In this document: positions 51,811 through 64,000 of the stretch, piece by piece | Numbering within the stretch: the stretch's first letter is position 1 | How the letters are laid out: each line of letters starts with the position of its first letter | Assembly (NCBI GenBank): GCA_028292665.1 | Contig: JAQGLW010000020.1 | Location: 1-64,000, forward strand | Direction of reading: 5' to 3' | DNA: 64,000 bases | From: Herminiimonas sp. | Lineage (GTDB): Bacteria > Pseudomonadota > Gammaproteobacteria > Burkholderiales > Burkholderiaceae_D | Notes under the pieces: model-generated | What the model was told of the DNA's origin: nothing | Databases searched by the model: none | Seen by the model: the letters and a program-made list of their open reading frames with translations, nothing else | Program-made: the position numbers and the translations under genes

Positions 51811-52827
51811 TTATCTGTTGATGAACGCCAAAATATCGTCAAGCAGTTTCTTTGGTACAAAGACACCATTTTTCTCGCTGCGGGCACGAGCATCAAATCT
51901 ACGCTGCGACGGAAGGCGAGCTCCCTGGCCGGTAATTTGTTCAAACAATTTTTCTGCTCGGCCGAAGTTCGCTTCGGTATCCGCCCCCAAAAAGACCTTA
52001 GGATCCAGTGCCAGGATGAGCTCGCCATGGCAAGGGGTAGCTCCGGCGCCGGCGTCAAAAGCCTGTGATTCAGAACTCAATAGATCGCCAATCAGCGGAC
52101 CTGCAAGCAATTCAATCATGCAAGAAAGTGCCGAACCCTTGTGCTGCCCAAACGTAAGCATCGCACCAGCCAGGCCCGCTTCTGCATTGTCGGTTGGTTC
52201 GCCGGACGCATCAACGGCCCAGCCAAAAGGTATAGCCTTCCCGCTGCGGCGGTGAAGCTCAATTTCTCCTCTGGCCACCGCGCTGGTCGCAAAATCAAAT
52301 ACATATGGATCGCCACCAGGGCGAGGCCACGCGAAGGCTATAGGATTGGTACCAAATACTGGCTTTGTACCGCCGGCAGGTGCTACCCAACTATGACTGG
52401 GGGTTAATGCGAGGCCAACTAGGCCTTGGGATGCCAGATGTTCAACTTCAGGCCACAGCGCTGAGAAGTGGTAGCAGTTGTTAATAGCGAGGGCTGCTAT
52501 TCCCACTTTTTTGGCCTTTTCGGCAAGGTGCTTCGCACCCATCTCGAAGGCCAATTGGGAGTAGCCGAACTTCGCGTCGACTTTGACGACGGCGGGGGCC
52601 ACATCGATCACTTCTGGCAGGGCGCTCTTGTTGACCTTTCCTTGTTTCAAGGTATTGACACTGACAATCAGTCGATAGACCCCATGTGAATAACATTCGT
52701 CACGTTCTCCCGCAGTAATCACCTTTGCGATGGCATGAGCATGATCGCTTCCAAGGCCATTTTTCTCAAGGACTTCAACGGCGAGGTTGTGAACCTCGGT
52801 CAGGGAAAGATTAAGTAGTTCGTTCAT
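51811..52827 (-). CDS. Ldh-family NAD(P)-dependent oxidoreductase
   Basis: A 338-residue enzyme of the malate/L-lactate dehydrogenase (Ldh) family, the group that also contains delta1-pyrroline-2-carboxylate and ureidoglycolate reductases. Visible blocks are ECYSHGVYRLIVSVNTLKQGKV near the N-terminus, LAINNCYHFSALWPEVEHLA and PVFGTNPIAFAWPRPGGDP, with the usual HKGSALSCMIELLAG near residue 240. The layout looks intact. It is divergent from a GntR regulator, with the putative operator at 52972 between them. Neighbours suggest a role in imino-acid catabolism, but the substrate is inferred only. Confidence 0.85.
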   Translation of the reverse strand: MNELLNLSLTEVHNLAVEVLEKNGLGSDHAHAIAKVITAGERDECYSHGVYRLIVSVNTLKQGKVNKSALPEVIDVAPAVVKVDAKFGYSQLAFEMGAKHLAEKAKKVGIAALAINNCYHFSALWPEVEHLASQGLVGLALTPSHSWVAPAGGTKPVFGTNPIAFAWPRPGGDPYVFDFATSAVARGEIELHRRSGKAIPFGWAVDASGEPTDNAEAGLAGAMLTFGQHKGSALSCMIELLAGPLIGDLLSSESQAFDAGAGATPCHGELILALDPKVFLGADTEANFGRAEKLFEQITGQGARLPSQRRFDARARSEKNGVFVPKKLLDDILAFINR

Positions 52828-52971
52828 ATTTGGTGTGATGGAGAGGCATGCCTGTGATGGAAATCAAGTGGCATGACAGGAAATAGATCCCTGAACGATA
52901 TGCGCTGCAGCGCGGTAAGCGGCATAAGGCAGCCGAACTAGAAGCAGTGCTGCGGTTTATGAATAATGTAA

Positions 52972-52983
52972 ATTGGATGCAAT
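52972..52983. promoter_or_regulatory. Candidate GntR operator, ldh-gntR divergent region
   Basis: ATTGGATGCAAT, one change from the ATTGGATACAAT motif found at 53934. It lies 60 bases before the gntR start, in the shared promoter region. Confidence 0.5.
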
Positions 52984-53042
52984 ATGCAATATGCGTAATT
53001 AAGATTATAAGATATTCTTACGTGTGTCAATAACTACGCCTA

Positions 53043-53780
53043 GTGGCCATGAATACATCCTCCTCATCCGATCTGTCGCAATCTGAGGAGCGTCGCATAG
53101 TCCGGAAGACGGCCGTTGAATTGGTCGTTGAGAAACTCAGAAACAGAATTCTTAACGGAAAATTGGCGCCTGGATCACAGCTGCGACAAGAATCGCTCGC
53201 AGAAGAACTAGGCGTTAGTCGGATTCCATTGCGTGAAGCTTTTCGTCTACTCAGCTCGGAGGGCCTGGTTGAACTACAGCCACACCGCGGTGCATTTGTG
53301 TCGTTGGTATCAGCAGAAGAAGTGGAAGAGCTCTTCGAGCTGCGTCAGAAGATCGAGCCTTGGCTGGTCGAAGAAGCTGCAGCCAAGATTTCAGAGGACG
53401 TATTGAAGCAAGCTGCGCGTCTGGTTGTTGAGATGGACAAGGTCAAACCTGAACGTTGGGGGTTTCTAAACTGGCAGTTGCATGAGATTCTCTATAGCGC
53501 CGCTGAGAAGCCAACAGCATTGGCTATGGTCAAAACCCTTCACGATAAATCTGAGCGATATTTCCGTTTTCAAATCGTAAATGCGCCAATTCGAAAGCAA
53601 TCGCGTACCGAACATCTTGAGTTAATCAAGGCTTGTCGTGAGCGGAAGGGTTCTGTTGCGCGGGAAGTCATGCAGCATCATATTCAAGACGCTGCGGTTC
53701 AGATCCTTGCCATTGTTAGGCAGTTGATGGATGAGAGCGAAACAACAACTTCAACCCGCAAAGTTGTGGTTACCGCGTAA
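53043..53780 (+). CDS. GntR-family (FCD) transcriptional regulator
   Basis: A 245-residue regulator. The winged helix is LRNRILNGKLAPGSQLRQESL and LAEELGVSRIPLREAFRLLSSEGLV, typical GntR. The C-terminal FCD domain contains NWQLHEILYSAAEKPTALA, HLELIKACRE and VMQHHIQDAA, the probable metal/ligand histidines. The GTG at 53043 or the ATG six bases later can serve as start. FCD regulators sense small organic acids. Its recognition site is probably the palindrome seen at 53934 and 60908. Confidence 0.9.
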   Translation: MAMNTSSSSDLSQSEERRIVRKTAVELVVEKLRNRILNGKLAPGSQLRQESLAEELGVSRIPLREAFRLLSSEGLVELQPHRGAFVSLVSAEEVEELFELRQKIEPWLVEEAAAKISEDVLKQAARLVVEMDKVKPERWGFLNWQLHEILYSAAEKPTALAMVKTLHDKSERYFRFQIVNAPIRKQSRTEHLELIKACRERKGSVAREVMQHHIQDAAVQILAIVRQLMDESETTTSTRKVVVTA

Positions 53781-53930
53781 TTCAGAACAACCGCCGTGTG
53801 ATTTGCGCGAGGTGACATGTTGCTGTCGCTTTGCGCTATCAACGTCAGTGTAGTGAAATTTTAGTCCCTGCATTCGCAGTGAGTGGCGGAAATAAAAAAC
53901 TAAAAAATACGTAAAAAAAATCTACTAATT

Positions 53931-53948
53931 TATATTGGATACAATATA
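53931..53948. promoter_or_regulatory. Candidate GntR operator upstream of the DapA-family gene
   Basis: TATATTGGATACAATATA is a perfect palindrome with 7-bp arms around GATA. It lies 135 bases before the start of the DapA-family gene. Confidence 0.6.
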
Positions 53949-54082
53949 CTATTAATCAAGGGCAGATAACTAGCCCTGTATTTTCGATGCAGGTCGAGCG
54001 TGAATAGCAGGGTAGTTACCGCCAGTTTCCTTGGTCAAGTGAGTCGCTTGATCGCTTATTTCTTTACATACAGGAGTATTAA

Positions 54083-54982
54083 ATGTCCGTCCTCTGGAAA
54101 GGTGTATTTCCGGCAGTTACCACCAAACTGCAAGCAAATGGCTCGCTCGACGAAGCCGCAATCAAGAAGGGTCTTGAGCGTTTGATCGATGCCGGCGTGG
54201 GCGGTATCGTGATGATGGGTATGGTCGGCGAGAACGCATCGCTGTCCGCGGAAGAAAAGCGTCAAGTTCTGCGTATCGCAAAGGAAACCGTTGCTGGTCG
54301 CGTGCCTATCATTTCGGGTGTTGCAGAAACTAGCACTCAAGGCGCAATCGATTTTGCTCGCGCAGCCCAAGAGATCGGCGTCGACGGCCTGATGGTTTTC
54401 CCTGCCCTGACATATAAGTCGGACGCACGAGAAACTGTCGCGTTCTACCGTGCAGTTGCTCAGGCAGTAAACATCGACATCATGCTGTACAACAACCCAC
54501 GCGGCTACGGCGTCGATTTGACTCCTGAATTGCTTGAGCAACTGAAGGCGGAAAAGAACATCACTGCCATCAAAGAAGAGTCCTACGACACTACTCGCGT
54601 GACAGATCTGTTCAACGCGTTCAGCGAACGTTTTGCCGTGGTCTGCGGTGTTGATGATCTGGTGCTGGAAAGTGTTGTCCTTGGCGCTACTTGCTGGGTT
54701 TCGGGTATGGCAAATGCCGTTCCGAAGGAATCGGTCAAACTGCTCAACGACGCAGTGGCTGGCGATTTCACCTCCGCACGCAAGTTGTATCGCATTCTGA
54801 CTCCGCTGTTCCATCTGGATACGCACGTCAAGCTGGTGCAGTACATCAAACTGGCAGAGAACATCATTGCCGGCTTCTCCGAAGCTGTCAAAGCGCCACG
54901 CCTGGCGCTTGAAGGTGAAGAGCGCAAGCGCATTATTTCTGTGGTCGAGAAGACCGTCAGCGATCTGAAGGCTAATGCATAA
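54083..54982 (+). CDS. DapA/NanA-family lyase or deaminase
   Basis: A 299-residue TIM-barrel protein of the dihydrodipicolinate synthase family. The Schiff-base Lys lies in ITAIKEESYDTTRV near residue 165. The Tyr of IMLYNNPRGYGVDL and the loop MMGMVGENASLSAEEKRQV are present. The family also contains N-acetylneuraminate lyase, 2-keto-3-deoxy acid aldolases and 1-pyrroline-4-hydroxy-2-carboxylate deaminase. With a GntR/FCD regulator, an Ldh-type reductase and amino-acid ABC transporters around it, a proline/hydroxyproline-type deaminase is one plausible role (inference). The gene looks intact. Confidence 0.88.
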   Translation: MSVLWKGVFPAVTTKLQANGSLDEAAIKKGLERLIDAGVGGIVMMGMVGENASLSAEEKRQVLRIAKETVAGRVPIISGVAETSTQGAIDFARAAQEIGVDGLMVFPALTYKSDARETVAFYRAVAQAVNIDIMLYNNPRGYGVDLTPELLEQLKAEKNITAIKEESYDTTRVTDLFNAFSERFAVVCGVDDLVLESVVLGATCWVSGMANAVPKESVKLLNDAVAGDFTSARKLYRILTPLFHLDTHVKLVQYIKLAENIIAGFSEAVKAPRLALEGEERKRIISVVEKTVSDLKANA

Positions 54983-55010
54983 GTTTCAAATCAGATAGTT
55001 TCTCTGATTA

Positions 55011-55057
55011 GACAGCTTCATGTGACTAGAGATTGGCGTCTCCCATATGAAGCTGTC
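55011..55057. repeat. 14-bp-arm inverted repeat after the DapA-family gene
   Basis: GACAGCTTCATGTG (55011-55024) pairs with CATATGAAGCTGTC (55044-55057) with one G-U/mismatch, across a 19-base loop. No T run follows, so it may be a transcript-end hairpin or a recombination scar. Confidence 0.55.
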
Positions 55058-55208
55058 GCCATGTCCTTTGCCGTTATTGCAATGTGAGCTGGATATGATT
55101 CAGATATTCAGCATTCGATTTTTGTGTTTGTCGTAAATCATAAGATCTCGAACTGCAGCATGGGGATGGTGCACGTTCGGGCTTCTCGAATTTTCAGGAT
55201 TTTCCGAT

Positions 55209-56027
55209 ATGGATACCAAGGCCGCGGTCCGCCCGCCTATTTATGCCAAAGTGCTCGTCGCTAGTTTAGTGGGCAGCGTCATTGAATGGTTCGACTATTT
55301 CTTGTATGGGACCGTCGCCGTATTGGTGTTTAACAAGCTATTCTTCCCAAGTTTTGATCCGGTCGTCGGATTGATGCTCTCGTATCTTTCCTTTTCTCTT
55401 ACTTTTTTCGTACGCCCGTTTGGCGGCATCCTTTACTCGCATATTGCGACATTAGTCACTGTGGGTGCGATTCCGATCATGGGAATGTTGGCTGACAAAA
55501 TCGGCAACAAAAAAGTCTTCATCATCGGAAGTATTTTAATGGCGCTTTTTGCCTACCCTTACTTTATGTTGCTCGACATAGGAAAAACATGGGGAATTAT
55601 TCTGGCATCCGTCCTAGTTCTGGGGCTGGTGTGGGCTCCCATTGTCGCAACAATCGGTTCGGTGCTTGCGCAGATTTTCTCCACACGTGTCCGTTTCACA
55701 GGAATTACGATCGGCTCCCAGCTCGGCGCCGCCTTTGCGGGCGGCACGGCACCATTGATTGCAACCTGGCTGCTGAAAGAAAACGCCAGCAGCTGGTCCT
55801 CGGTTGCGATTTATATCATCGTTTGCGCTGTCGTGTCTTTGGTCTCCGTAGCCAGCGTAGCGAGGAAAAAAGAAGAAGCGCACAATGCGCTCGGTATCGG
55901 TGCAAAAAACCTGATCATTTTGAGCGCACGCCGCCGCCCCGAATGGAGGAGATCCGGAAAGACGGAGGTAATTAGCAGGAATCGCGTGTGTTTTCGAGGC
56001 GTCAAAGGCAGGTATATATTGCTCTAA
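55209..56027 (+). pseudogene. MHS-family (metabolite:H+) transporter with an internal deletion
   Basis: The N-terminus (SLVGSVIEWFDYFLYGTVAVL) and helix 2 region (FFVRPFGGILYSHI) are those of MHS-family symporters (ShiA/ProP-like, about 430 residues). At about residue 80 the sequence jumps to ATLVTVGAIPIMGMLADKIG, which belongs to the second half, so roughly 170 residues are missing in frame. The end is also unusual (SARRRPEWRRSGKTE...) after residue about 245. At 272 residues it cannot form a full 12-helix transporter. It lies in the GntR regulon and was probably once the uptake protein for its substrate. Confidence 0.75.
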
Positions 56028-56033
56028 TAATAT

Positions 56034-56045
56034 ATTGTATCCGAA
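56034..56045. promoter_or_regulatory. Candidate GntR operator (partial) before the first ABC cluster
   Basis: ATTGTATCCGAA matches the reverse-strand form ATTGTATCCAAT at 10 of 12 positions. It lies 30 bases before the substrate-binding-protein start. Confidence 0.45.
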
Positions 56046-56074
56046 AAGGATATTTCTAATCTAAGGAGATTGTT

Positions 56075-57292
56075 ATGAATCGTCGCAAATTATTAGCTGT
56101 TGCTGTCGCAGGTCTGATTTCTTCGCAATTTGCGATTTCCGCCTGGGCGCAGCAAGAGTCGTTCAAGATCGGCTCTCTGAATCCGGTGACAGGAGCGGGC
56201 TCACCGTACGGTACTGGGATGCTGAAAGCAATTCAGTTGGCCGTCGCAGAAGTCAATGGCGCTGGTGGTGCCGGCGGAGCAAAGTTTGAGATGTTTGCAG
56301 AAGACTCTCAAACCAATCCGCAATCTGCTGTACTCGGCGCTAAGAAACTCATTGATGTGCAAAAAGTGAAAGCGATCGTAGGGGCGTGGAGTTCGGGTGA
56401 GTCGCTGGCGGTTATCCCGATTACCAATGATTCCAACGTCCTTTTGATGCATGCCGCCGGCGCGCCGGCCTTAAGTGTCGCTCCCGCCAATACCAAGAAG
56501 TTGGGCTTCCGTTTCCAGGCTACAAACGAGCGCTTCGGCCGTGCATTTGCGCTAATTGCTAAGAAGGAAAACTTCAAGCGCCCAGGAACGATGGCATTCA
56601 ATAACGCATCGGGTGTCGGTAATACTGATGGATTCAAGAAGGCATGGACAGCAGCCAAGGGCAGTGTGGTCGCAAGCGTTGTCTACGAACCGAACCGTCC
56701 GACATATCGCTCGGAACTGCAAGAAGTTCTCCGGGCCAAGCCAGACGTCATTGTCACAGGCTCTTATCTCGCAGACACCACGATTATCCTGCGTGAATGG
56801 TATCAAACAGGCCAGCAGACTCGTTGGATCATTCCTGGTTGGGCAGCGAACGCGGATCTTCTGAAAGCGCTCGGCCCGGAAGTCACAGAAGGCATCATTT
56901 CTGTTGAATGCGTCTCTGCCGAAGACTCCCCAGCGTACAAGAGCTTTGCTGATCGCTTTGTGAAACAGACAGGGATGCAGGCGCAAGACAACGTCTACGC
57001 TGCCATGTCTTATGATGAAGTAATTATTCTCGCGCTTGCAGTCCAGGCGCTGGGGCCTAACGCTACCGGCGAAGCCCTTGCCAAGAAAGTACATGAACTC
57101 GGTACTCCGGGCGGCACAGTCGTGAACAGCTTTGCTGAAGGTAAAAAGGCTTTGGCCGCACGTACACGTATTACGTACAGCGGTGCTTCGAGCGCATTTA
57201 ACTTCGACGAAAACAATGACGTGACGCCAAATTTCGCGGCTTCCTTTGTCGAAAAAGGTAAGTTGGTCCGCAAGTACCTGGTCAAGTTGTAA
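56075..57292 (+). CDS. ABC transporter substrate-binding protein, branched-chain amino-acid type (cluster 1)
   Basis: A 405-residue periplasmic receptor. Signal peptide LLAVAVAGLISSQFAISAWAQQ. The periplasmic-binding fold starts FKIGSLNPVTGAGSPYGTGMLKAIQLA, typical of LivK-like type I receptors (two-lobed). Ligands are usually branched-chain or other amino acids and amides; the ligand here is not known. A GGAG ribosome site precedes the ATG. It begins the livK-H-M-G-F-like operon. Confidence 0.92.
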   Translation: MNRRKLLAVAVAGLISSQFAISAWAQQESFKIGSLNPVTGAGSPYGTGMLKAIQLAVAEVNGAGGAGGAKFEMFAEDSQTNPQSAVLGAKKLIDVQKVKAIVGAWSSGESLAVIPITNDSNVLLMHAAGAPALSVAPANTKKLGFRFQATNERFGRAFALIAKKENFKRPGTMAFNNASGVGNTDGFKKAWTAAKGSVVASVVYEPNRPTYRSELQEVLRAKPDVIVTGSYLADTTIILREWYQTGQQTRWIIPGWAANADLLKALGPEVTEGIISVECVSAEDSPAYKSFADRFVKQTGMQAQDNVYAAMSYDEVIILALAVQALGPNATGEALAKKVHELGTPGGTVVNSFAEGKKALAARTRITYSGASSAFNFDENNDVTPNFAASFVEKGKLVRKYLVKL

Positions 57293-57305
57293 TAGAGGCT
57301 GTTTA

Positions 57306-58178
57306 ATGAATTTCGCTGATTATCTTAATCTAGCGCTTAATGGTCTGGTGGAAGGGCTGCTTATCGCCCTTCCAGCACTAGCGGTAACGCTAGTGCATGG
57401 GCTTGCGCGGTTCCCTAATGCTGCAACAGGGGATGTAGTCGCCACCGGCGGTGTGGGTGGCTTGCTTGCGTTTAATCTCACCGGGTCGCTTGTTCTTGGC
57501 GGTATCAGTGGCGCCATTGCTGGTGCTGTCACGTCGCTTCTTGTGTATTTCCTGGCATTCAAGCCGGTAATTCGCAGGTCTGTAATTACCTTGCTTCTAA
57601 CGTCGATCGGGGTGGGATTTTTTATCCGCTCTGTCTTGGGCGTCACCTTTGGGCACGATCCGAAAGTCTTCAACCTCCCATTGAGCCGCGCGATCAATCT
57701 GGGAGGAGTGCTGATCAACCCTACCGACCTGGTCCTGGCCGGCTTGATCGTTGTCGTCTTGGCTGCAGTCTTTGCGATGCTCTACATCGCACCTATTGGC
57801 CGGATCATGCGAGCGTTGGCGGACGATCCGGATTTGGGTCGCGTGTGCGGGATTCACAAGGAGCGTGCCATGGTCATGATGTGGGCCGTATCGGGCGCCG
57901 TTTGTGGGATCGCCGGCACCGTTCTCGGTGTTCGGACAGCGATTTCTCCAGAAATGGGCTGGAATCTTCTGTTGCCGGCGTTCGCCGCTGCGGTCATCGG
58001 AGGACTCGGTAATCCTGTCGGTGCTGTTGCCGGGGCTGTGTTGCTAGGTGTTACTCAGGAATTGTCGACCCCGTTCGTTGGCTTCGTGTACAAGATCGCG
58101 CTTGCGTACGTCGTTATGTTGCTCGTTCTCTTACTGCGTCCTCAAGGACTGTTTAATCGACCTCAGGGAGTGCGTTGA
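57306..58178 (+). CDS. ABC transporter permease, LivH type (cluster 1)
   Basis: A 290-residue inner-membrane permease with about eight helices (for example LIALPALAVTLVHGLARFPNAATGDV near the N-terminus, the LivH hallmark, and FAAAVIGGLGNPVGAVAGAVLLG near the end). The ATG at 57306 has a GAGG ribosome site and follows the receptor stop by 13 bases; the longer open frame reads inside the receptor gene. Its stop overlaps the livM-type gene. Confidence 0.92.
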   Translation: MNFADYLNLALNGLVEGLLIALPALAVTLVHGLARFPNAATGDVVATGGVGGLLAFNLTGSLVLGGISGAIAGAVTSLLVYFLAFKPVIRRSVITLLLTSIGVGFFIRSVLGVTFGHDPKVFNLPLSRAINLGGVLINPTDLVLAGLIVVVLAAVFAMLYIAPIGRIMRALADDPDLGRVCGIHKERAMVMMWAVSGAVCGIAGTVLGVRTAISPEMGWNLLLPAFAAAVIGGLGNPVGAVAGAVLLGVTQELSTPFVGFVYKIALAYVVMLLVLLLRPQGLFNRPQGVR

Positions 58179-59065
58179 TGAGCAGCTATATCACTACCAT
58201 TTTGATCGTAATGTCGATCTACGTACTGTTGGCGCTTGCTCTGGATCTACAGTACGGATTTACCGGACTCATCAACTTCGGTGTAGTCGGTTTTTTTGGC
58301 GTCGGGGCGTATACGACCTCCTTGCTGACCCTGAAGGCTGGTTGGCCTGCCTGGTTGTCGTTTCCGGCCGCAATGGTCATCGCTGGCGCGCTGTCATGGC
58401 CAATTGGACGAATCGCGCTGAAACTCAGAGACGACTATCTCGCGATCGTCACTCTTGGCTTTTCCGAGATTATCCGACTTATTATCGTGAAAGAAGAATG
58501 GCTGACTAACGGTGTGCAGGGTGTTTCCGGCGTACCAAGGCTGTGGCCCACGTGGACCGGTAAAGCGAGCGAGCTGTTCCTGCTGGGAGCATTGATTGCC
58601 GCAAACGTCATCACAGCGTTGGTCATGCGCCGGATCACACAGAGTCCATATGGACGGACCATTCAGGCCATCCGAGACGACGAGGTGGCAGTGACGGCAT
58701 TAGGTAAATCTCCGTCGAGGTTTAAGACTCAAGTTTTGGTGATCGGCGGAGCAATTGCTGGGCTTGCTGGCGCCTTCTATGCGCACTACATCACGTACGT
58801 TGTTCCTGATCAGTTTATGCCATTGGTCACGTTCTACGTTTGGATTGCCATCATCATGGGTGGAGTGGCGCGTTTGCTGGGCTCAATTTCCGGTGCGATT
58901 CTGCTGGTGGTGCTCCTCGAGGGGTCTCGATTCCTTCGTGGCGTGATTCCAGGCGTATCGGATGTTGCCATGGCAAGTGTGCAGCTGGGTGTAGTTGGTT
59001 TGCTGTTGATTTTATTTATGCGCTGGCGGCCGCAAGGTCTGTTCGGCCAAAGGAGTGCAAATTGA
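58175..59065 (+). CDS. ABC transporter permease, LivM type (cluster 1)
   Basis: A 296-residue permease, the partner of the LivH-type subunit. Characteristic stretches are LALALDLQYGFTGLINFGVVGFFGVGAYT, IALKLRDDYLAIVTLGFSEII and MGGVARLLGSISGAILLVVLLEG. Ends with MRWRPQGLFGQRSAN, the usual LivM tail. It overlaps both neighbours by four bases. Confidence 0.93.
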   Translation: MMSSYITTILIVMSIYVLLALALDLQYGFTGLINFGVVGFFGVGAYTTSLLTLKAGWPAWLSFPAAMVIAGALSWPIGRIALKLRDDYLAIVTLGFSEIIRLIIVKEEWLTNGVQGVSGVPRLWPTWTGKASELFLLGALIAANVITALVMRRITQSPYGRTIQAIRDDEVAVTALGKSPSRFKTQVLVIGGAIAGLAGAFYAHYITYVVPDQFMPLVTFYVWIAIIMGGVARLLGSISGAILLVVLLEGSRFLRGVIPGVSDVAMASVQLGVVGLLLILFMRWRPQGLFGQRSAN

Positions 59066-59817
59066 CGTCATTAAAGACATCTGACATCGAATTGTCTTAT
59101 GGCGACTTCAAGGTTCTCGATGGCGTAACAATGGAGATGAGTCTTTCCGGTCTCCACGGCATGATCGGTCCCAATGGCGCAGGCAAGAGCACCTTGTTTT
59201 CCGTGTTAAGCGGCTTTCTGAAGCAAACTGATGGAAAGGTGAGTTTCAACGATGTAGCGTTCGAAACCATGTCACCTGCAGACAGGGCTACTCATGGCTT
59301 CGGTCGAACCTTTCAGGTTCCCCGGGAATTCAAGCACCTCACGGTGCGCGAGAACTTGATGGTCGGCGCTAGAAAGCAACCTGGCGAATCATTGATCAAG
59401 CTTCTTTTTGCTCCAGGCGAGGTGCGCCGCGCCGAAGCCGAGATTGCTGAGCGCGTCGACGGCATCTTGCAATTTCTGAAATTGGCTTCGGTAGCGGACA
59501 AGCTAGCTGGCGGTCTTTCCGGAGGCCAGAAGAAACTGCTCGAGCTCGGTCGCATTCTGATGTCCAATCCGAAGTTCATTTTGCTCGATGAGCCGTATGC
59601 GGGTGTCAATCCAGTATTGATCGAAGAAATTTCCCTGCGAATCAAGGAGCTCAATGAAACAGGTATTGGTTTCTTGATCATTGAACACAACATCGAAGCG
59701 CTCAATCGTTTGGTGGATGATCTTTACGTCATGGATCGAGGTGCCTTGCTCGCGCATGGCAACCCAGAGGAGGTCTTGGAAAACCGAGCCGTCCGCGTCG
59801 CCTATATGGGGAGTTAG
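59062..59817 (+). CDS. ABC transporter ATP-binding protein, LivG type (cluster 1)
   Basis: A 251-residue ATPase. Walker A is GPNGAGKST, the signature motif is LSGGQKKLLE and Walker B is FILLDEPYAGVNP, the latter typical of LivG. The TTG at 59062 is the only suitable start: it overlaps the livM stop by four bases and has AGGAG 7 bases upstream. An earlier frame start would read into livM. Couples ATP hydrolysis to transport. Confidence 0.92.
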   Translation: MTSLKTSDIELSYGDFKVLDGVTMEMSLSGLHGMIGPNGAGKSTLFSVLSGFLKQTDGKVSFNDVAFETMSPADRATHGFGRTFQVPREFKHLTVRENLMVGARKQPGESLIKLLFAPGEVRRAEAEIAERVDGILQFLKLASVADKLAGGLSGGQKKLLELGRILMSNPKFILLDEPYAGVNPVLIEEISLRIKELNETGIGFLIIEHNIEALNRLVDDLYVMDRGALLAHGNPEEVLENRAVRVAYMGS

Positions 59818-59819
59818 GA

Positions 59820-60524
59820 ATGGAAGCTGTGTTGAAAATGCACGATATCAAGGGTGGATACGGCGAGGTCGACATTCTTAAAGGAATTAGCCTGCAGGTT
59901 TTTCCGGGTGATATCGTGACCATCGCCGGCACCAATGGGGCCGGAAAATCGACGATCATTAAGGCGATCATGGGATTACTCCCTCGCGTTACAGGAGCGA
60001 TCTCTTTTCAAGGTCGAGACATTCTGAAAGGAAGCGTCGAATCGCGATTAGAACAAGGCATAGGGTACGTGCCACAAGTAGCTAATGTATTCCCGTCATT
60101 GACGGTGCACGAAAATCTACTGGTGGTCCAAGGAGTTCGTCGCCAAAAAGAGCGGGCAGCATCAATGTATGAGATGTTCCCCGCGCTTGCCGGACATCGG
60201 AAGCGCAAAGCAGGGCTGCTGTCTGGCGGAGAACGTCAGCAACTGGCATTTGCCCGGGCCTTAATGCGTGAGCCTAAGATGATGTTGCTTGACGAGCCGA
60301 GTGCAGCACTTTCTCCCGCTTTGGTTGGCGAGATATTCTCTTACGTGGAGAGATTACCCAAGGCCGGAACGGCGGTTCTGATGGTTGAACAGCGGGCCAG
60401 GCAGTCGCTGGCCATTAGCCATCGGGGCTACATCATTGATCAAGGACGTGTTGCTATGGAAGGGGAGGCAACTAAGTTGCTGAACGATCCGGCTGCAGCT
60501 GACCTATTCATCGGCAAGCACTGA
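59820..60524 (+). CDS. ABC transporter ATP-binding protein, LivF type (cluster 1)
   Basis: A 234-residue ATPase. Walker A is GTNGAGKST (a Thr where the related proteins have Pro), signature LSGGERQQLA and Walker B MMLLDEPSAALSP. The LivF-type tail is present. It follows the LivG-type gene by two bases and ends 16 bases before a terminator, so it is the last gene of the first cluster. Confidence 0.93.
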   Translation: MEAVLKMHDIKGGYGEVDILKGISLQVFPGDIVTIAGTNGAGKSTIIKAIMGLLPRVTGAISFQGRDILKGSVESRLEQGIGYVPQVANVFPSLTVHENLLVVQGVRRQKERAASMYEMFPALAGHRKRKAGLLSGGERQQLAFARALMREPKMMLLDEPSAALSPALVGEIFSYVERLPKAGTAVLMVEQRARQSLAISHRGYIIDQGRVAMEGEATKLLNDPAAADLFIGKH

Positions 60525-60540
60525 CAAACATTCGCCAATA

Positions 60541-60573
60541 AAAAAAGCATGGTTTCGACCATGATTTTTTTTC
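60541..60573 (+). terminator. Intrinsic terminator after the first ABC cluster
   Basis: CATGGT (60548-60553), a TTCG tetraloop (60554-60557) and ACCATG (60558-60563) are followed by A and eight T residues. A preceding A run makes it work on both strands. A clear stop signal for the livK-F-like operon. Confidence 0.9.
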
Positions 60574-61082
60574 GTCCAACATGTTCACGACTTGTAATCG
60601 ACTTTGTCCAATTTTTAGTGTCGTCATTTCCGCAATATTAAGTGCCGCATTGCAGCACTCATGTCCTCTTTCGTTGTGATCTTTGTGCATACAAATTGCG
60701 CCGTGATTGCAAAAAATATCGTCATTATTTTTTTTGCATGCTGATGGAAATGGGCATGCTGTGCAGCAGCATTCTTTGCGACTCAAACTGACGCAAAGAA
60801 TCATAAATTTGCACCAACGTCGCGTATCTTAAATTCATTGTCATTTTTGCGTAATGAATCGTTGACAAGTGCATATCTATATTCTAATCTTGCGCGGCAT
60901 CTAGAATATTGTATCCAATATAAATTAAATGACTTGTGTCGGATGTGAAGCGTTATCAATTTTCTGCGTGGAGACGTAGGTTGTTTCGATAGAAGTTGCT
61001 CAGCTAGTTCGTAGTGCCGTGGTGGACGAGTGCGCCTCTCACTGAGCTGGCGTATATCGACAAGATCAATTTTGGGCAGAAC
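60574..61082. other. Long intergenic gap with the second-cluster promoter
   Basis: About 510 bases without a convincing gene; a Cys-rich frame on the minus strand overlaps the terminator and is doubtful. It holds the GntR-type operator at 60908. An AT-rich stretch around 60850-60930 is a plausible promoter region for the second ABC operon. Confidence 0.5.
60906..60921. promoter_or_regulatory. Candidate GntR operator before the second ABC cluster
   Basis: ATATTGTATCCAATAT is the reverse complement of ATATTGGATACAATAT seen at 53932-53947, a perfect 6-bp-arm palindrome around TATC. It lies about 160 bases before the ATP-binding-protein start. Confidence 0.6.
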
Positions 61083-61853
61083 ATGAATACATCGATTCTT
61101 CGAGTGCATGACCTACATTGTCATTTCTGGGGGGTACGTGCTTTAGATGGTGCAACTTTCGAAGTTGCTGAAAAAAAGATTACAGGGCTTATCGGTCCAA
61201 ATGGGGCCGGTAAAACGACGCTTTTCAATTGCATTAGTGGCCTCCTGCCAAAGACCGCGGGGCAGGTCGAATTCAATGGCAAGAACATCTCGGAAAGCCG
61301 CTCAGACCAAATCACCAATCTGGGACTCATCCGAACGTTCCAGTTGGCCAGGGGGTGTCCACGAATGACAGTCTTTGAACACCTGATGCTGTACGGGCGC
61401 AATCAATCCGCAGAGGGAATTCTCTCTGCTTTCCTCGGTGGCGCCAAAGTGCGTCAAGAAGAACAGGAGCTGCGGGAGCATGCACACAGTTCCGCCAAGC
61501 GTCTAAAGCTGGACCACGTTTTGGATAACTTGGTTACGGATCTTTCGGGTGGTCAGAAGAAGTTGCTCGAGATCGGACGTGCCCTGATGTCGAAACCCAA
61601 GATGATCTTGCTGGATGAACCGATGGCTGGTGTCAATCCAGCTCTCGTTGATCAGATCGCAGAGCATCTCAGTGACATTCGGGCACAAGGCGTGGCAATC
61701 CTTCTCATCGAGCACGAGATGGCACTCATCGAAAAGCTGTGCGACGACGTAGTCGTGATGGCCGAAGGAAAGTACCTGACGCGAGGTGCATTTGCAGAGA
61801 TTGCCTCCAACAAAACCGTTCAAGAAGCCTATCTCGGGATGAAGCGTTCATGA
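61083..61853 (+). CDS. ABC transporter ATP-binding protein, LivG type (cluster 2)
   Basis: A 256-residue ATPase with Walker A GPNGAGKTT, signature LSGGQKKLLE and Walker B MILLDEPMAGVNP. The ATG at 61083 starts MNTSILRVHDLHCHFWGV. It overlaps the next gene by four bases (ATGA). In this cluster the ATPases come first and the receptor and permease follow, the opposite of cluster 1. Confidence 0.92.
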   Translation: MNTSILRVHDLHCHFWGVRALDGATFEVAEKKITGLIGPNGAGKTTLFNCISGLLPKTAGQVEFNGKNISESRSDQITNLGLIRTFQLARGCPRMTVFEHLMLYGRNQSAEGILSAFLGGAKVRQEEQELREHAHSSAKRLKLDHVLDNLVTDLSGGQKKLLEIGRALMSKPKMILLDEPMAGVNPALVDQIAEHLSDIRAQGVAILLIEHEMALIEKLCDDVVVMAEGKYLTRGAFAEIASNKTVQEAYLGMKRS

Positions 61854-62569
61854 GTTCGATACAGATTAAGGAGCTGCGTGGCGGCTATGCCACTGCGGAG
61901 GAAATCGTCAAAGGTGTAGATCTGAACATCGCACCACGTGACCTTGCAATCATCATTGGGCCAAACGGTGCTGGAAAATCGACACTCCTCAAGCTCGTCG
62001 CCGGTCTACTTAAGCCGAAGAACGGCTTGATCTCTCTGGATGAGAAACCAATGGCTCTCGGCGACGCGCAGCTCGCCTGCCGAAACGGCCTGGGTTTCGT
62101 TCCCCAAGAAAAGAATGTCTTCGGCAGTCTTACTGTGCTCGAGAACCTGGAGATGGGTGGTTACTTGTTGAAGTCCGGACTGCAACAGCGAATCGAGGAA
62201 CAGTTGCAGCGATTTCCTCTGTTGAAAAAGCGCTTGAAAGACAAGGCAGGAAGTTTGTCCGGCGGTCAACGGCAGGTATTGGCGGTTGCGATCGCATTGA
62301 TGACAAATCCTACAGTCCTCTTACTCGACGAGCCAACAGCAGGACTCTCTCCTGCTGCGGCCGACGAAATCCTGGGAATGGTGAAAGGACTTGCGGAAGA
62401 TGGTCTCGCGATTCTGATGGTAGAGCAAAACGCATTGCTGGCGCTTGAATACGGTACACGCGGGATCGTGCTGGTAGCCGGGAAGAAGATTCGAGATGAG
62501 AGCGCGTCGTCATTATTGCAAGACGATGAAATTAGAAGTTTGTTTTTGGGTGGCGGAAAGAAACATTAA
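61850..62569 (+). CDS. ABC transporter ATP-binding protein, LivF type (cluster 2)
   Basis: A 239-residue ATPase starting MSSIQIKELRGGYATAEEIVKG. Walker A GPNGAGKST, signature LSGGQRQVLA, Walker B VLLLDEPTAGLSP. It partners the preceding LivG-type ATPase. Followed after 19 bases by the receptor gene. Confidence 0.92.
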   Translation: MSSIQIKELRGGYATAEEIVKGVDLNIAPRDLAIIIGPNGAGKSTLLKLVAGLLKPKNGLISLDEKPMALGDAQLACRNGLGFVPQEKNVFGSLTVLENLEMGGYLLKSGLQQRIEEQLQRFPLLKKRLKDKAGSLSGGQRQVLAVAIALMTNPTVLLLDEPTAGLSPAAADEILGMVKGLAEDGLAILMVEQNALLALEYGTRGIVLVAGKKIRDESASSLLQDDEIRSLFLGGGKKH

Positions 62570-62588
62570 CCTTACTGGGGAGTGCAAC

Positions 62589-63791
62589 ATGGAACAAGGC
62601 AGAAGGAATTTCATGATTTATGGCGGTGGTCTTGGCGTGGCGGCAGCAGTTTTGCCAGGCATTTTGCATGCGCAGAACAGTGGCCCGATCAAAATCGGTG
62701 TTTTGATTCCCTTGACTGGTAGCACCAGTCAGTATGGTTCTACCTTGGGCCAGGCCGCAACTTTGGCCGCTCAGGAAATCAACGCCGCGGGCGGAGTGAA
62801 TGGCCGTAAGGTCGAGATCCTCATTGAGGATGATCAAAGTAACCCCGAAGCTGGTGTGCGTGCCGCACGCAAGCTGATCGATGTCGACAAAGTTGTAGCA
62901 ATCTGTGGAACGTACGCATCGTCGGTGACGGCGGCAGTTGCTCCGCTGTGCTGGGAAGCAAAGGTACCCCTGTTCACGTCGTCTGGAGCAGACAGCATCA
63001 CAAAGCTGCCGCACCATGGCTTTATTTTTCGTACCTCTCCAACAGTGACGATCCAAGGCCAACGTTTGGCGCAATTCTCCATGGATGTCGGTGGAAAAAA
63101 GGTCTACTTCATGGGGCCACAAACTCCGTTCGCACAGACGTACATCGACAGTATGACTGCGGTGATGACAAAAGCCGGCGGTACATGTGGCGGCCTGGTC
63201 TATGAAGATAAGAAGACGACCTATAGAACGGAAGTCGACCAGGTACTCAAGAACAAGCCAGATATCATCGTTCTCGGCGGCTACGTCCCAGACACTGCGG
63301 TCGTGATTAAAGATCTCTATCGTGCAGGATTCGCTGGCAAGAAAATTGGTCTCGCATTCGGTGTGAACCAAAAGTTGGTTGAAGGCGTGCAGAAAGAAGC
63401 CGTGGAAGGGACGTATTCCTTGACACCTTCGGCCGCCGTCAATTCGCCCGCGTATAAGAATTTGGTGGCGAAGTTGAAGATGGAATCGCTGGATGTCTAC
63501 AGCTGCCAAATCTACGACCACATCAATCTTGTCGCGCTCGCTATCGCGCATAGCAAGACCGCGACCGGCAATGCTGTGAAAGAAAACGTGCGCATTATCT
63601 CGCAACAAGCCAAAGCGCAGGTTGCCGAGAACTTTCCAGACGCCATCAAGATTCTAGCGGCCAAGGGTTCGGTTAACTATGACGGTGCCAGTGGCTCTTG
63701 CGAGTTCGCGGAAAACGGCGATGTGCAGAGAGCTGTATTTCGCTACGACCAGATCCAGGCTGGGAAAATTGTGACCGTCAAGGTCGCTTGA
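62589..63791 (+). CDS. ABC transporter substrate-binding protein (cluster 2)
   Basis: A 400-residue periplasmic receptor with a twin-arginine-type start (GRRNFMIYGGGLGVAAAV...), so Tat export is possible. The mature fold begins PIKIGVLIPLTGSTSQYGSTL, typical of LivK-like receptors. The ATG at 62589 has a GGGGAG ribosome site; the earlier frame start lies inside the ATPase gene. It probably binds a different ligand from the cluster 1 receptor, as the two differ in sequence. Confidence 0.92.
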   Translation: MEQGRRNFMIYGGGLGVAAAVLPGILHAQNSGPIKIGVLIPLTGSTSQYGSTLGQAATLAAQEINAAGGVNGRKVEILIEDDQSNPEAGVRAARKLIDVDKVVAICGTYASSVTAAVAPLCWEAKVPLFTSSGADSITKLPHHGFIFRTSPTVTIQGQRLAQFSMDVGGKKVYFMGPQTPFAQTYIDSMTAVMTKAGGTCGGLVYEDKKTTYRTEVDQVLKNKPDIIVLGGYVPDTAVVIKDLYRAGFAGKKIGLAFGVNQKLVEGVQKEAVEGTYSLTPSAAVNSPAYKNLVAKLKMESLDVYSCQIYDHINLVALAIAHSKTATGNAVKENVRIISQQAKAQVAENFPDAIKILAAKGSVNYDGASGSCEFAENGDVQRAVFRYDQIQAGKIVTVKVA

Positions 63792-63819
63792 TTTCAATTA
63801 ATACGTTCGAGGCAATGCA

Positions 63820-64000
63820 ATGATTATCGATTTAGTTCAGCACTTATTAAATGGGCTGATGCTGGGGGCGATTCTAGCCCTCCCTGCACTTGGATTAACT
63901 CTCATTTTTAGCGTGCTTGGCTTTGTCAACTTTAGCATTGCCGCACAGATGTCGGCGGGTGCGTACGCTGGTTGGGTCGTCAATAACCAATTTCATTGGT
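63820..64000 (+). CDS. ABC transporter permease, LivH type (cluster 2, partial, cut by window end)
   Basis: The frame starts MIIDLVQHLLNGLMLGAILA and continues LPALGLTLIFSVLGFVNFSIA, the LivH start. About 60 residues are visible, the rest lies outside. It follows the receptor by 28 bases. Confidence 0.9.
   Translation, partial: MIIDLVQHLLNGLMLGAILALPALGLTLIFSVLGFVNFSIAAQMSAGAYAGWVVNNQFHW

What the first reader, a model, noticed from the sequence alone, without database searches (positions are those of the whole stretch)
52972..60921. Repeated GntR operator motif defines a regulon
ATTGGATACAAT or its reverse complement, with 0-2 changes, occurs before the ldh/gntR pair, before the DapA-family gene, before the first ABC cluster and before the second. 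Two copies are perfect palindromes with AT extensions. One regulator could control uptake and breakdown together.
Basis: partly seen in the sequence, partly recalled or inferred. Interest (0 to 1): 0.55.

Follow-up and report, generated by a model that had tools for sequence, protein, structure and literature searches.

The report
HypR-type switch for hydroxyproline use
A short DNA word repeated in front of most gene groups of a hydroxyproline-eating gene cluster, and almost nowhere else in the genome, looks like the landing site of two sister repressor proteins; this is a known kind of switch, here found with a doubled regulator.

Summary
The motif is real, rare and confined to one gene cluster. 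ATTGGATACAAT occurs exactly three times in the 4.33-Mb genome, all inside a 23.4-kb cluster, about half of which lies beyond the window. ATTGGATACAATAT with at most one change has six places, five in the cluster. Two weaker sites make seven, in front of most transcription units. Genes beyond the window reveal the pathway: 4-hydroxyproline epimerase, D-amino-acid dehydrogenase, aldehyde dehydrogenase, dipeptidase-like amidohydrolase, with the DapA-type gene inside: trans-4-hydroxy-L-proline use. A second GntR, 63% identical with a nearly identical recognition helix, sits at the far end. Herbaspirillum sp. RV1423 has a similar cluster with four of the sites. Of 22 foreign loci with a GntR1 relative and hydroxyproline genes in the stretch, 21 carry a site, about 1 expected. 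De novo search on 15 foreign loci recovers the motif. Best reading: a HypR-type (GntR/FCD) regulon, probably repressed and released by hydroxyproline or a product, with paired paralogous regulators. HypR regulons are published: a new member of a known kind. Binding, repression and effector are inferred.

The parts
52970..52985 (+). operator S1 (AAATTGGATGCAATAT) between ldh and gntR1
   Evidence: 1 change; 16/16 bases kept in Herbaspirillum RV1423 against 60% in the rest of the aligned intergenic stretch
53932..53947 (+). operator S2 (ATATTGGATACAATAT) before the DapA-family gene
   Evidence: exact; best score on the contig with both matrices from foreign loci
56032..56047 (-). operator S3, weaker (2 changes), centre 35 nt before the ABC1 binding-protein gene
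   Evidence: block TATTGCTCTAATAATATATTGTATCC identical in RV1423; seventh on the contig with either matrix
60906..60921 (-). operator S4 (ATATTGGATACAATAT on the - strand) before ABC cluster 2
   Evidence: exact; second score with one matrix, tied first with the other
51811..52827 (-). Ldh_2 (MLD2) dehydrogenase, possibly Delta1-pyrroline-2-carboxylate reductase
   Evidence: Pfam PF02615 317 bits; MLD2 role from passages of PMC4113996
53049..53780 (+). gntR1, HypR-type GntR/FCD regulator
   Evidence: Pfam GntR + FCD above cut-off; tree
54083..54982 (+). DapA-family gene, probable Delta1-pyrroline-4-hydroxy-2-carboxylate deaminase
   Evidence: Pfam DHDPS 183 bits; relatives lie near epimerase and oxidase genes in many foreign loci
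55209..56027 (+). MFS transporter ORF, apparently with the middle part deleted
   Evidence: TIGR00883 in two stretches; residues 79-211 fit profile positions 269-400 of 400, full score below cut-off
56075..60524 (+). ABC cluster 1 (binding protein, two permeases, two ATPases), branched-chain amino acid type
   Evidence: binding protein, one permease and one ATPase scanned; five genes 93-96% identical in RV1423
61083..64000 (+). ABC cluster 2 (two ATPases, binding protein, then permeases; runs on to 65642 beyond the window)
   Evidence: labels by similarity to ABC1; best matches in the RV1423 contig only 34-43% identical

Best explanation
[quoted passage not shown] Two paralogous GntR/FCD proteins (gntR1 at 53049, gntR2 at 72585 on the contig) bind, as dimers, the near-palindrome ATATTG(G/T)AT(A/C)CAATAT in front of ldh/gntR1, dapA, ABC1, ABC2, the amidohydrolase unit, epimerase-dehydrogenase/gntR2 and aldehyde dehydrogenase. 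Without substrate they block transcription; some sites hold or adjoin -10-like hexamers such as TATACT. Hydroxyproline or an early product bound in the FCD domain releases them, so uptake, peptide cleavage and the route to 2-oxoglutarate are switched on together, and the regulators limit themselves and each other. Shown by sequence: pathway genes, sites, their rarity, conservation and linkage to this regulator type. Inferred: binding, repression, effector, cross-binding of both paralogs.
For: Pathway: epimerase equivalog NF010578 at 563 bits against a cut-off of 376; DAO, DHDPS, Aldedh, Amidohydro_1 in Pfam. Conservation in Herbaspirillum RV1423: operators S1, S2, S5 at 16/16, 14/16, 16/16 against 60, 68 and 73% in the rest of the same stretches; its only exact ATTGGATACAAT in 6.2 Mb is in this cluster. 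Across lineages: 21 of 22 hydroxyproline-linked loci carry a site, about 1 expected, reversed-pattern control 0. De novo palindromic search on 15 foreign loci gives TATTGTATACAATA (score 99.8 against 21.6-25.3 in 4 shuffles) and ranks five cluster sites first to fifth on the 78.3-kb contig. The two regulators share 26 of 28 residues over the recognition helix and its flanks.
Against: No binding or expression data. Caballeronia NK8 has the regulator type and the genes but no site. Some GntR relatives without hydroxyproline genes in the stretch also have the site (7 of 19 loci), so it is not diagnostic of the pathway. The GntR of the S. meliloti hydroxyproline cluster is only 25-27% identical and that locus has no such site. 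S3 and S7 are weak: in the de novo scan 7648 (before lptD) outranks S3, and 7648 and 14741 (inside an acyltransferase gene) outrank S7. The promoter scan of 52700-61200 was at chance (8 found, 7.2 expected), and its one match that overlaps an operator (56058-56029) points away from ABC1. The porin and chemoreceptor-like ORFs have no site of their own among those found.
Confidence: 0.88

Rival explanations
1. Only gntR2 (next to the epimerase and dehydrogenase genes) binds the motif; gntR1 has drifted to another role.
For: gntR2 lies beside core enzymes; two regulators for one operator seem redundant.
Against: The recognition helix and flanks are 26/28 identical, both genes have a site centred 70-72 nt upstream, and both paralogs are kept in RV1423 at 86 and 89% identity.
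Confidence: 0.08
2. The site belongs to another FCD-type GntR of the genome, which controls the cluster from outside.
For: The first look of two searches listed 15-18 candidates in this genome; a separate GntR group with SRTP helices also carries ATTGTATACAAT-like sites.
Against: In foreign loci the site goes with this regulator type beside hydroxyproline genes, 21 of 22.
Confidence: 0.03
3. Chance AT-rich matches in promoters.
For: At up to 3 mismatches the word is at chance frequency; promoter regions are AT-rich.
Against: Genome-wide rarity, out-of-window sites, conservation and de novo recovery.
Confidence: 0.01

Closest known systems
HypR regulons of Proteobacteria (PMC5343134, passages seen; Shewanella: PMC3223726, passages)
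   Same: GntR-family regulator, core genes hypE, hypO, hypD and hypH, autoregulation in 32 of 46 genomes, variable transporters, taxon-specific motif changes. PMC4494728 (passages) lists HypR among FadR-subfamily regulators with 2 nt between GT and AC, as in ATTGTATACAAT.
   Different: Here two paralogous regulators lie in one cluster; two branched-chain-type ABC transporters and an amidohydrolase unit carry the site; the site is mostly the asymmetric GGATAC form. The published HypR logo (a figure) was not seen, so letter-by-letter agreement is not tested.
HypR of Sinorhizobium meliloti (White et al. 2012, known here only as cited in PMC5343134)
   Same: GntR beside dapA-, Ldh-, ALDH-, ABC- and epimerase-type genes.
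   Different: 25-27% identical, SRTP recognition helix, no such site in the 14.5-kb locus. That this gene is HypR is inferred from its position.
HypR of Streptomyces coelicolor (PMC6608401, passages)
   Same: FadR-subfamily GntR/FCD repressor of hydroxyproline genes, studied there by EMSA, footprint and reporter.
   Different: Different operator, CTNTGC(A/C)ATGTCAC, with unclear symmetry. Protein not compared here.

Membership tests
HypR-type hydroxyproline regulon | Regulator is a GntR protein with an FCD domain | tested here: met
   PF00392 and PF07729 above cut-off for gntR1 and gntR2
HypR-type hydroxyproline regulon | Linked core genes: epimerase, D-amino-acid oxidase/dehydrogenase, DapA-type deaminase, KGSA dehydrogenase | tested here: met
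   at family level; only the epimerase passes an equivalog cut-off. The dehydrogenase, DapA-type and aldehyde dehydrogenase genes are below all specific NCBIfam cut-offs listed, so their substrates rest on context.
HypR-type hydroxyproline regulon | Operator with GT-2 nt-AC type palindrome before core genes and the regulator | tested here: met
   seven sites; de novo consensus TATTGTATACAATA from foreign loci
HypR-type hydroxyproline regulon | Shared ancestry with described HypR proteins | tested here: inconclusive
   falls in one 33-row group with Pseudoalteromonas and Vibrio hyp-linked GntRs (38% identity to the former), support 89/92, not starred, and 8 rows of that group are not hyp-linked; the S. 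meliloti protein falls outside on a very long branch. No Shewanella HypR was fetched.
HypR-type hydroxyproline regulon | Repression relieved by hydroxyproline | not testable with these tools
   needs binding and expression assays

The most novel reading that the evidence does not exclude
The two HypR paralogs form a paired switch: same operators, so they compete or form heterodimers, and their diverged parts let the cluster respond to two signals (for example the two hydroxyproline epimers, or a peptide-derived signal), while newly inserted units (ABC2, the amidohydrolase unit) were captured by gaining copies of the operator.
Probability: 0.25. Interest if true: 0.45.

Novelty: new member of a known kind. 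Interest (0 to 1): 0.3.

Why it matters
It turns four unexplained promoter words into a testable pathway regulon, suggests hydroxyproline or its peptides (from collagen or plant wall protein) as substrates of two branched-chain-type ABC transporters, and offers a compact case for how a regulon spreads onto new genes and why a duplicated repressor is kept.

Tried and rejected
Chance reading: rejected by genome-wide counts. Unlinked members: the one other 14-mer place with at most one change (C136:34528) lies inside ORFs; of the two best sites elsewhere on the window's contig, 7648 lies before an lptD gene and 14741 inside an acyltransferase gene. I looked at seven unlinked one-change places on other contigs, five of them inside ORFs of 80 aa or more; the other unlinked places on other contigs were not examined. 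In RV1423 a pair of one-change sites 2.4 kb apart on C10 falls inside ORFs that read as a sensor kinase and a membrane protein (labels by reading). RV1423 has aldehyde dehydrogenases 50, 47 and 36% identical on other contigs; I did not check their promoters. ABC2: no close relative of its binding protein in 299 other genomes of the order at E 1e-130, so its origin stays open. In one search the S. meliloti, Paracoccus and Sulfitobacter hydroxyproline loci (L120, L121, L125) were listed apart because no GntR1-type regulator was seen in the stretch (L121 and L125 show no annotated GntR, and L121 is cut beside its DapA gene). I set them apart after seeing that they lack the site; counted in, it is 21 of 25. 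From, 12 of the 22 matches outside the own genome were fetched with wide flanks; the rest were not examined. Of the plasmid hits only two GntR hits and six loci picked by the epimerase, plus one extension, were opened. Seven of the 22 linked loci are Microvirga and not independent. The training sites were picked with the window motif and so are partly circular; one search is the test that is not, though its 4 shuffles used 100 starts against 400 for the real data. The loci were compared with first-order Markov copies, 30 per locus. Structure prediction was not run; the family was not in doubt.

Full report
Observation. At up to three mismatches the word is as frequent as in shuffles (43 against 43.4), so loose matching would mislead. 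At zero or one mismatch it is selective. In the whole 4,334,345-base genome the exact ATTGGATACAAT occurs three times, at 53934, 60908 and 72509 of one contig. ATTGKATMCAAT with at most one change has 22 places, 5 inside the cluster 51811-75223; the density of the other 17 predicts 0.09 there. ATTGGATACAATAT with at most one change has 6 places, 5 in the cluster. The motif was chosen from this cluster, so the fair test is the part beyond the window: two more such sites appear there (72509 exact, 73458 one change) where 0.04 were expected. The copies are near-palindromes, not perfect ones.

What it is. The window ends in mid-cluster. The contig continues to 78314 (same coordinates). Beyond 64000 lie the rest of ABC2, a porin (65966-66985, Porin_4), a short chemoreceptor-like ORF (67096-67578, MCPsignal), a 175-aa ORF without a Pfam match (68064-68591; I thought of a GAF domain, no model supports it), an amidohydrolase (68626-69861) whose best NCBIfam model is an Xaa-Pro dipeptidase (240 bits, cut-off 500), a 4-hydroxyproline epimerase (70163-71161; NF010578, 563 bits, cut-off 376), a D-amino-acid dehydrogenase (71178-72425; 211 bits, cut-off 383), gntR2 (72585-73316), an aldehyde dehydrogenase (73628-75223), then two transposase genes with a proC between them. 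With the DapA-family gene and Ldh_2 this fits the published route trans-4-hydroxy-L-proline, cis-4-hydroxy-D-proline, pyrroline-4-hydroxy-2-carboxylate, 2-oxoglutarate semialdehyde, 2-oxoglutarate (PMC4113996, passages).

The sites. Seven, written in the GGATAC orientation: S1 52972 (ldh/gntR1), S2 53934 (dapA), S3 56034 (ABC1), S4 60908 (ABC2), S7 67947 (175-aa ORF and amidohydrolase), S5 72509 (dehydrogenase-epimerase/gntR2), S6 73458 (aldehyde dehydrogenase). S7, GGATAATGGATACATTATCC, differs from S2 by matched changes in both arms, so it keeps its symmetry; it is weak by score, and the RV1423 locus, where the amidohydrolase follows ABC1, has no such unit. The site is centred 70-72 nt before both gntR starts and 35 nt before the ABC1 start; the other distances are 90-170 nt. 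S2 and S4 share a 26-nt inverted match at 96%, which suggests that one may be a copy of the other; chance in AT-rich DNA is not excluded.

Conservation. Herbaspirillum sp. RV1423 has an orthologous cluster on one contig. There the tblastn search gave no close match for ABC2, the porin, the 175-aa ORF or the aldehyde dehydrogenase, and the amidohydrolase (93%) follows ABC1 directly. It has sites at the places of S1, S2, S3 and S5. Operators S1, S2 and S5 are kept at 16/16, 14/16 and 16/16 bases against 60, 68 and 73% around them. In its 6.2-Mb genome the one exact ATTGGATACAAT is in this cluster; with one change there are 3 places in the cluster and 16 on other contigs. The regulator is rare nearby: of 145 genomes drawn from the family, the own genome included, only the own one had it at E 1e-45, and of 399 drawn from the order 21, own included.

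Wider test. I sorted loci with a GntR1/2 relative by whether a tblastn hit to the epimerase or DapA protein lies in the stretch. Linked: 21 of 22 have at least one site with at most one change, 29 sites against 1.03 expected, reversed pattern 0. Not linked: 7 of 19, 13 sites against 2.77 expected; six of the seven are one separate group of MAGs (Syntrophaceae, Deltaproteobacteria, Dehalococcoidia, uncultured) with an SRTP helix. The exception among linked loci is Caballeronia NK8. Seven linked loci are Microvirga. Three hydroxyproline loci without this regulator type have no site (0 of 3). To lessen the circularity I ran a palindromic motif search of my own on upstream regions of 15 foreign loci without the window or RV1423: TATTGTATACAATA came out, with a clear site in 14 of 15, score 99.8 against 21.6-25.3 in four shuffles. 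This matrix ranks S2, S4, S5, S6 and S1 first to fifth on the 78.3-kb contig; 7648 is sixth, S3 seventh, 14741 eighth and S7 ninth. A matrix built from 23 foreign sites picked with the window motif, four of them from RV1423, puts all seven on top.

The regulators. gntR1 and gntR2 are 63% identical; 52 of 66 in the HTH, 26 of 28 over the recognition helix and its flanks, 81 of 126 in the FCD region. The putative metal-site residues N141, H145, H189 and H211 (roles recalled from FCD proteins, not tested) are the same in both. In the tree as drawn the pair arose before the split from RV1423 and after the split from the other beta relatives sampled. The closest solved chains by sequence are GntR-family regulators, first 3c7j and 7xp0.

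Mechanism and comparison. S2 and S6 run into TATACT, a -10-like hexamer (my reading). HypR of S. coelicolor is a repressor (PMC6608401) and HypR of S. meliloti a negative regulator with 4-hydroxy-L-proline as inducer (as stated in PMC5343134). Repression with substrate release is therefore the likely mode. The consensus promoter scan gave no support by itself. HypR regulons were reconstructed in 44 genomes of 12 groups by that paper's table, while its text speaks of 13 groups, two of them betaproteobacterial, and 46 genomes; HypR sites have 2 nt between GT and AC (PMC4494728). Three text searches listed 20 of 191, 15 of 29 and 5 of 5 papers; by title and opening of the abstract none was on this cluster in Herbaspirillum or on paired HypR paralogs. 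Subscription papers and supplements were not searched.

Verdict. It is a HypR-type hydroxyproline regulon, a known kind, with a doubled regulator and extended membership.

Noticed in passing
window 55209-56027: MFS transporter ORF of 272 aa fits the family profile only in its N-terminal and C-terminal parts, as if the middle were deleted. The RV1423 stretch between dapA and ABC1 is far shorter. Perhaps a former carrier replaced by ABC uptake.
   Followed up: partly
window 53926-53951 and 60902-60927: 26-nt inverted match (96%) between the operator regions of dapA and ABC2, longer than the operator itself; possible copying of an operator onto an inserted transporter.
   Followed up: partly
window 53002-53019 and contig 72539-72555 (L016 12539-12555): A second conserved block, AGATTATAAGATAT(C/T)CT, lies between the operator and the start of both gntR genes, in the window genome and in RV1423; before gntR2 it runs on as the near-palindrome ATAAGATATCCTAT. 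Perhaps the -10 region or another site.
   Followed up: no
L016 15249-16052 and 17404-18312: Two transposase genes (Pfam DDE_Tnp_1) between the cluster and the contig end; the cluster is also poorer in G+C (51.5%) than window 1-50000 (55.6%). With the rarity in the family this hints at horizontal gain.
   Followed up: no
L040, L043, L044: A separate GntR group (SRTP helix, no hydroxyproline genes found in the stretch) has ATTG(G/T)ATACAA-type sites directly before the gntR gene in these three loci.
   Followed up: no
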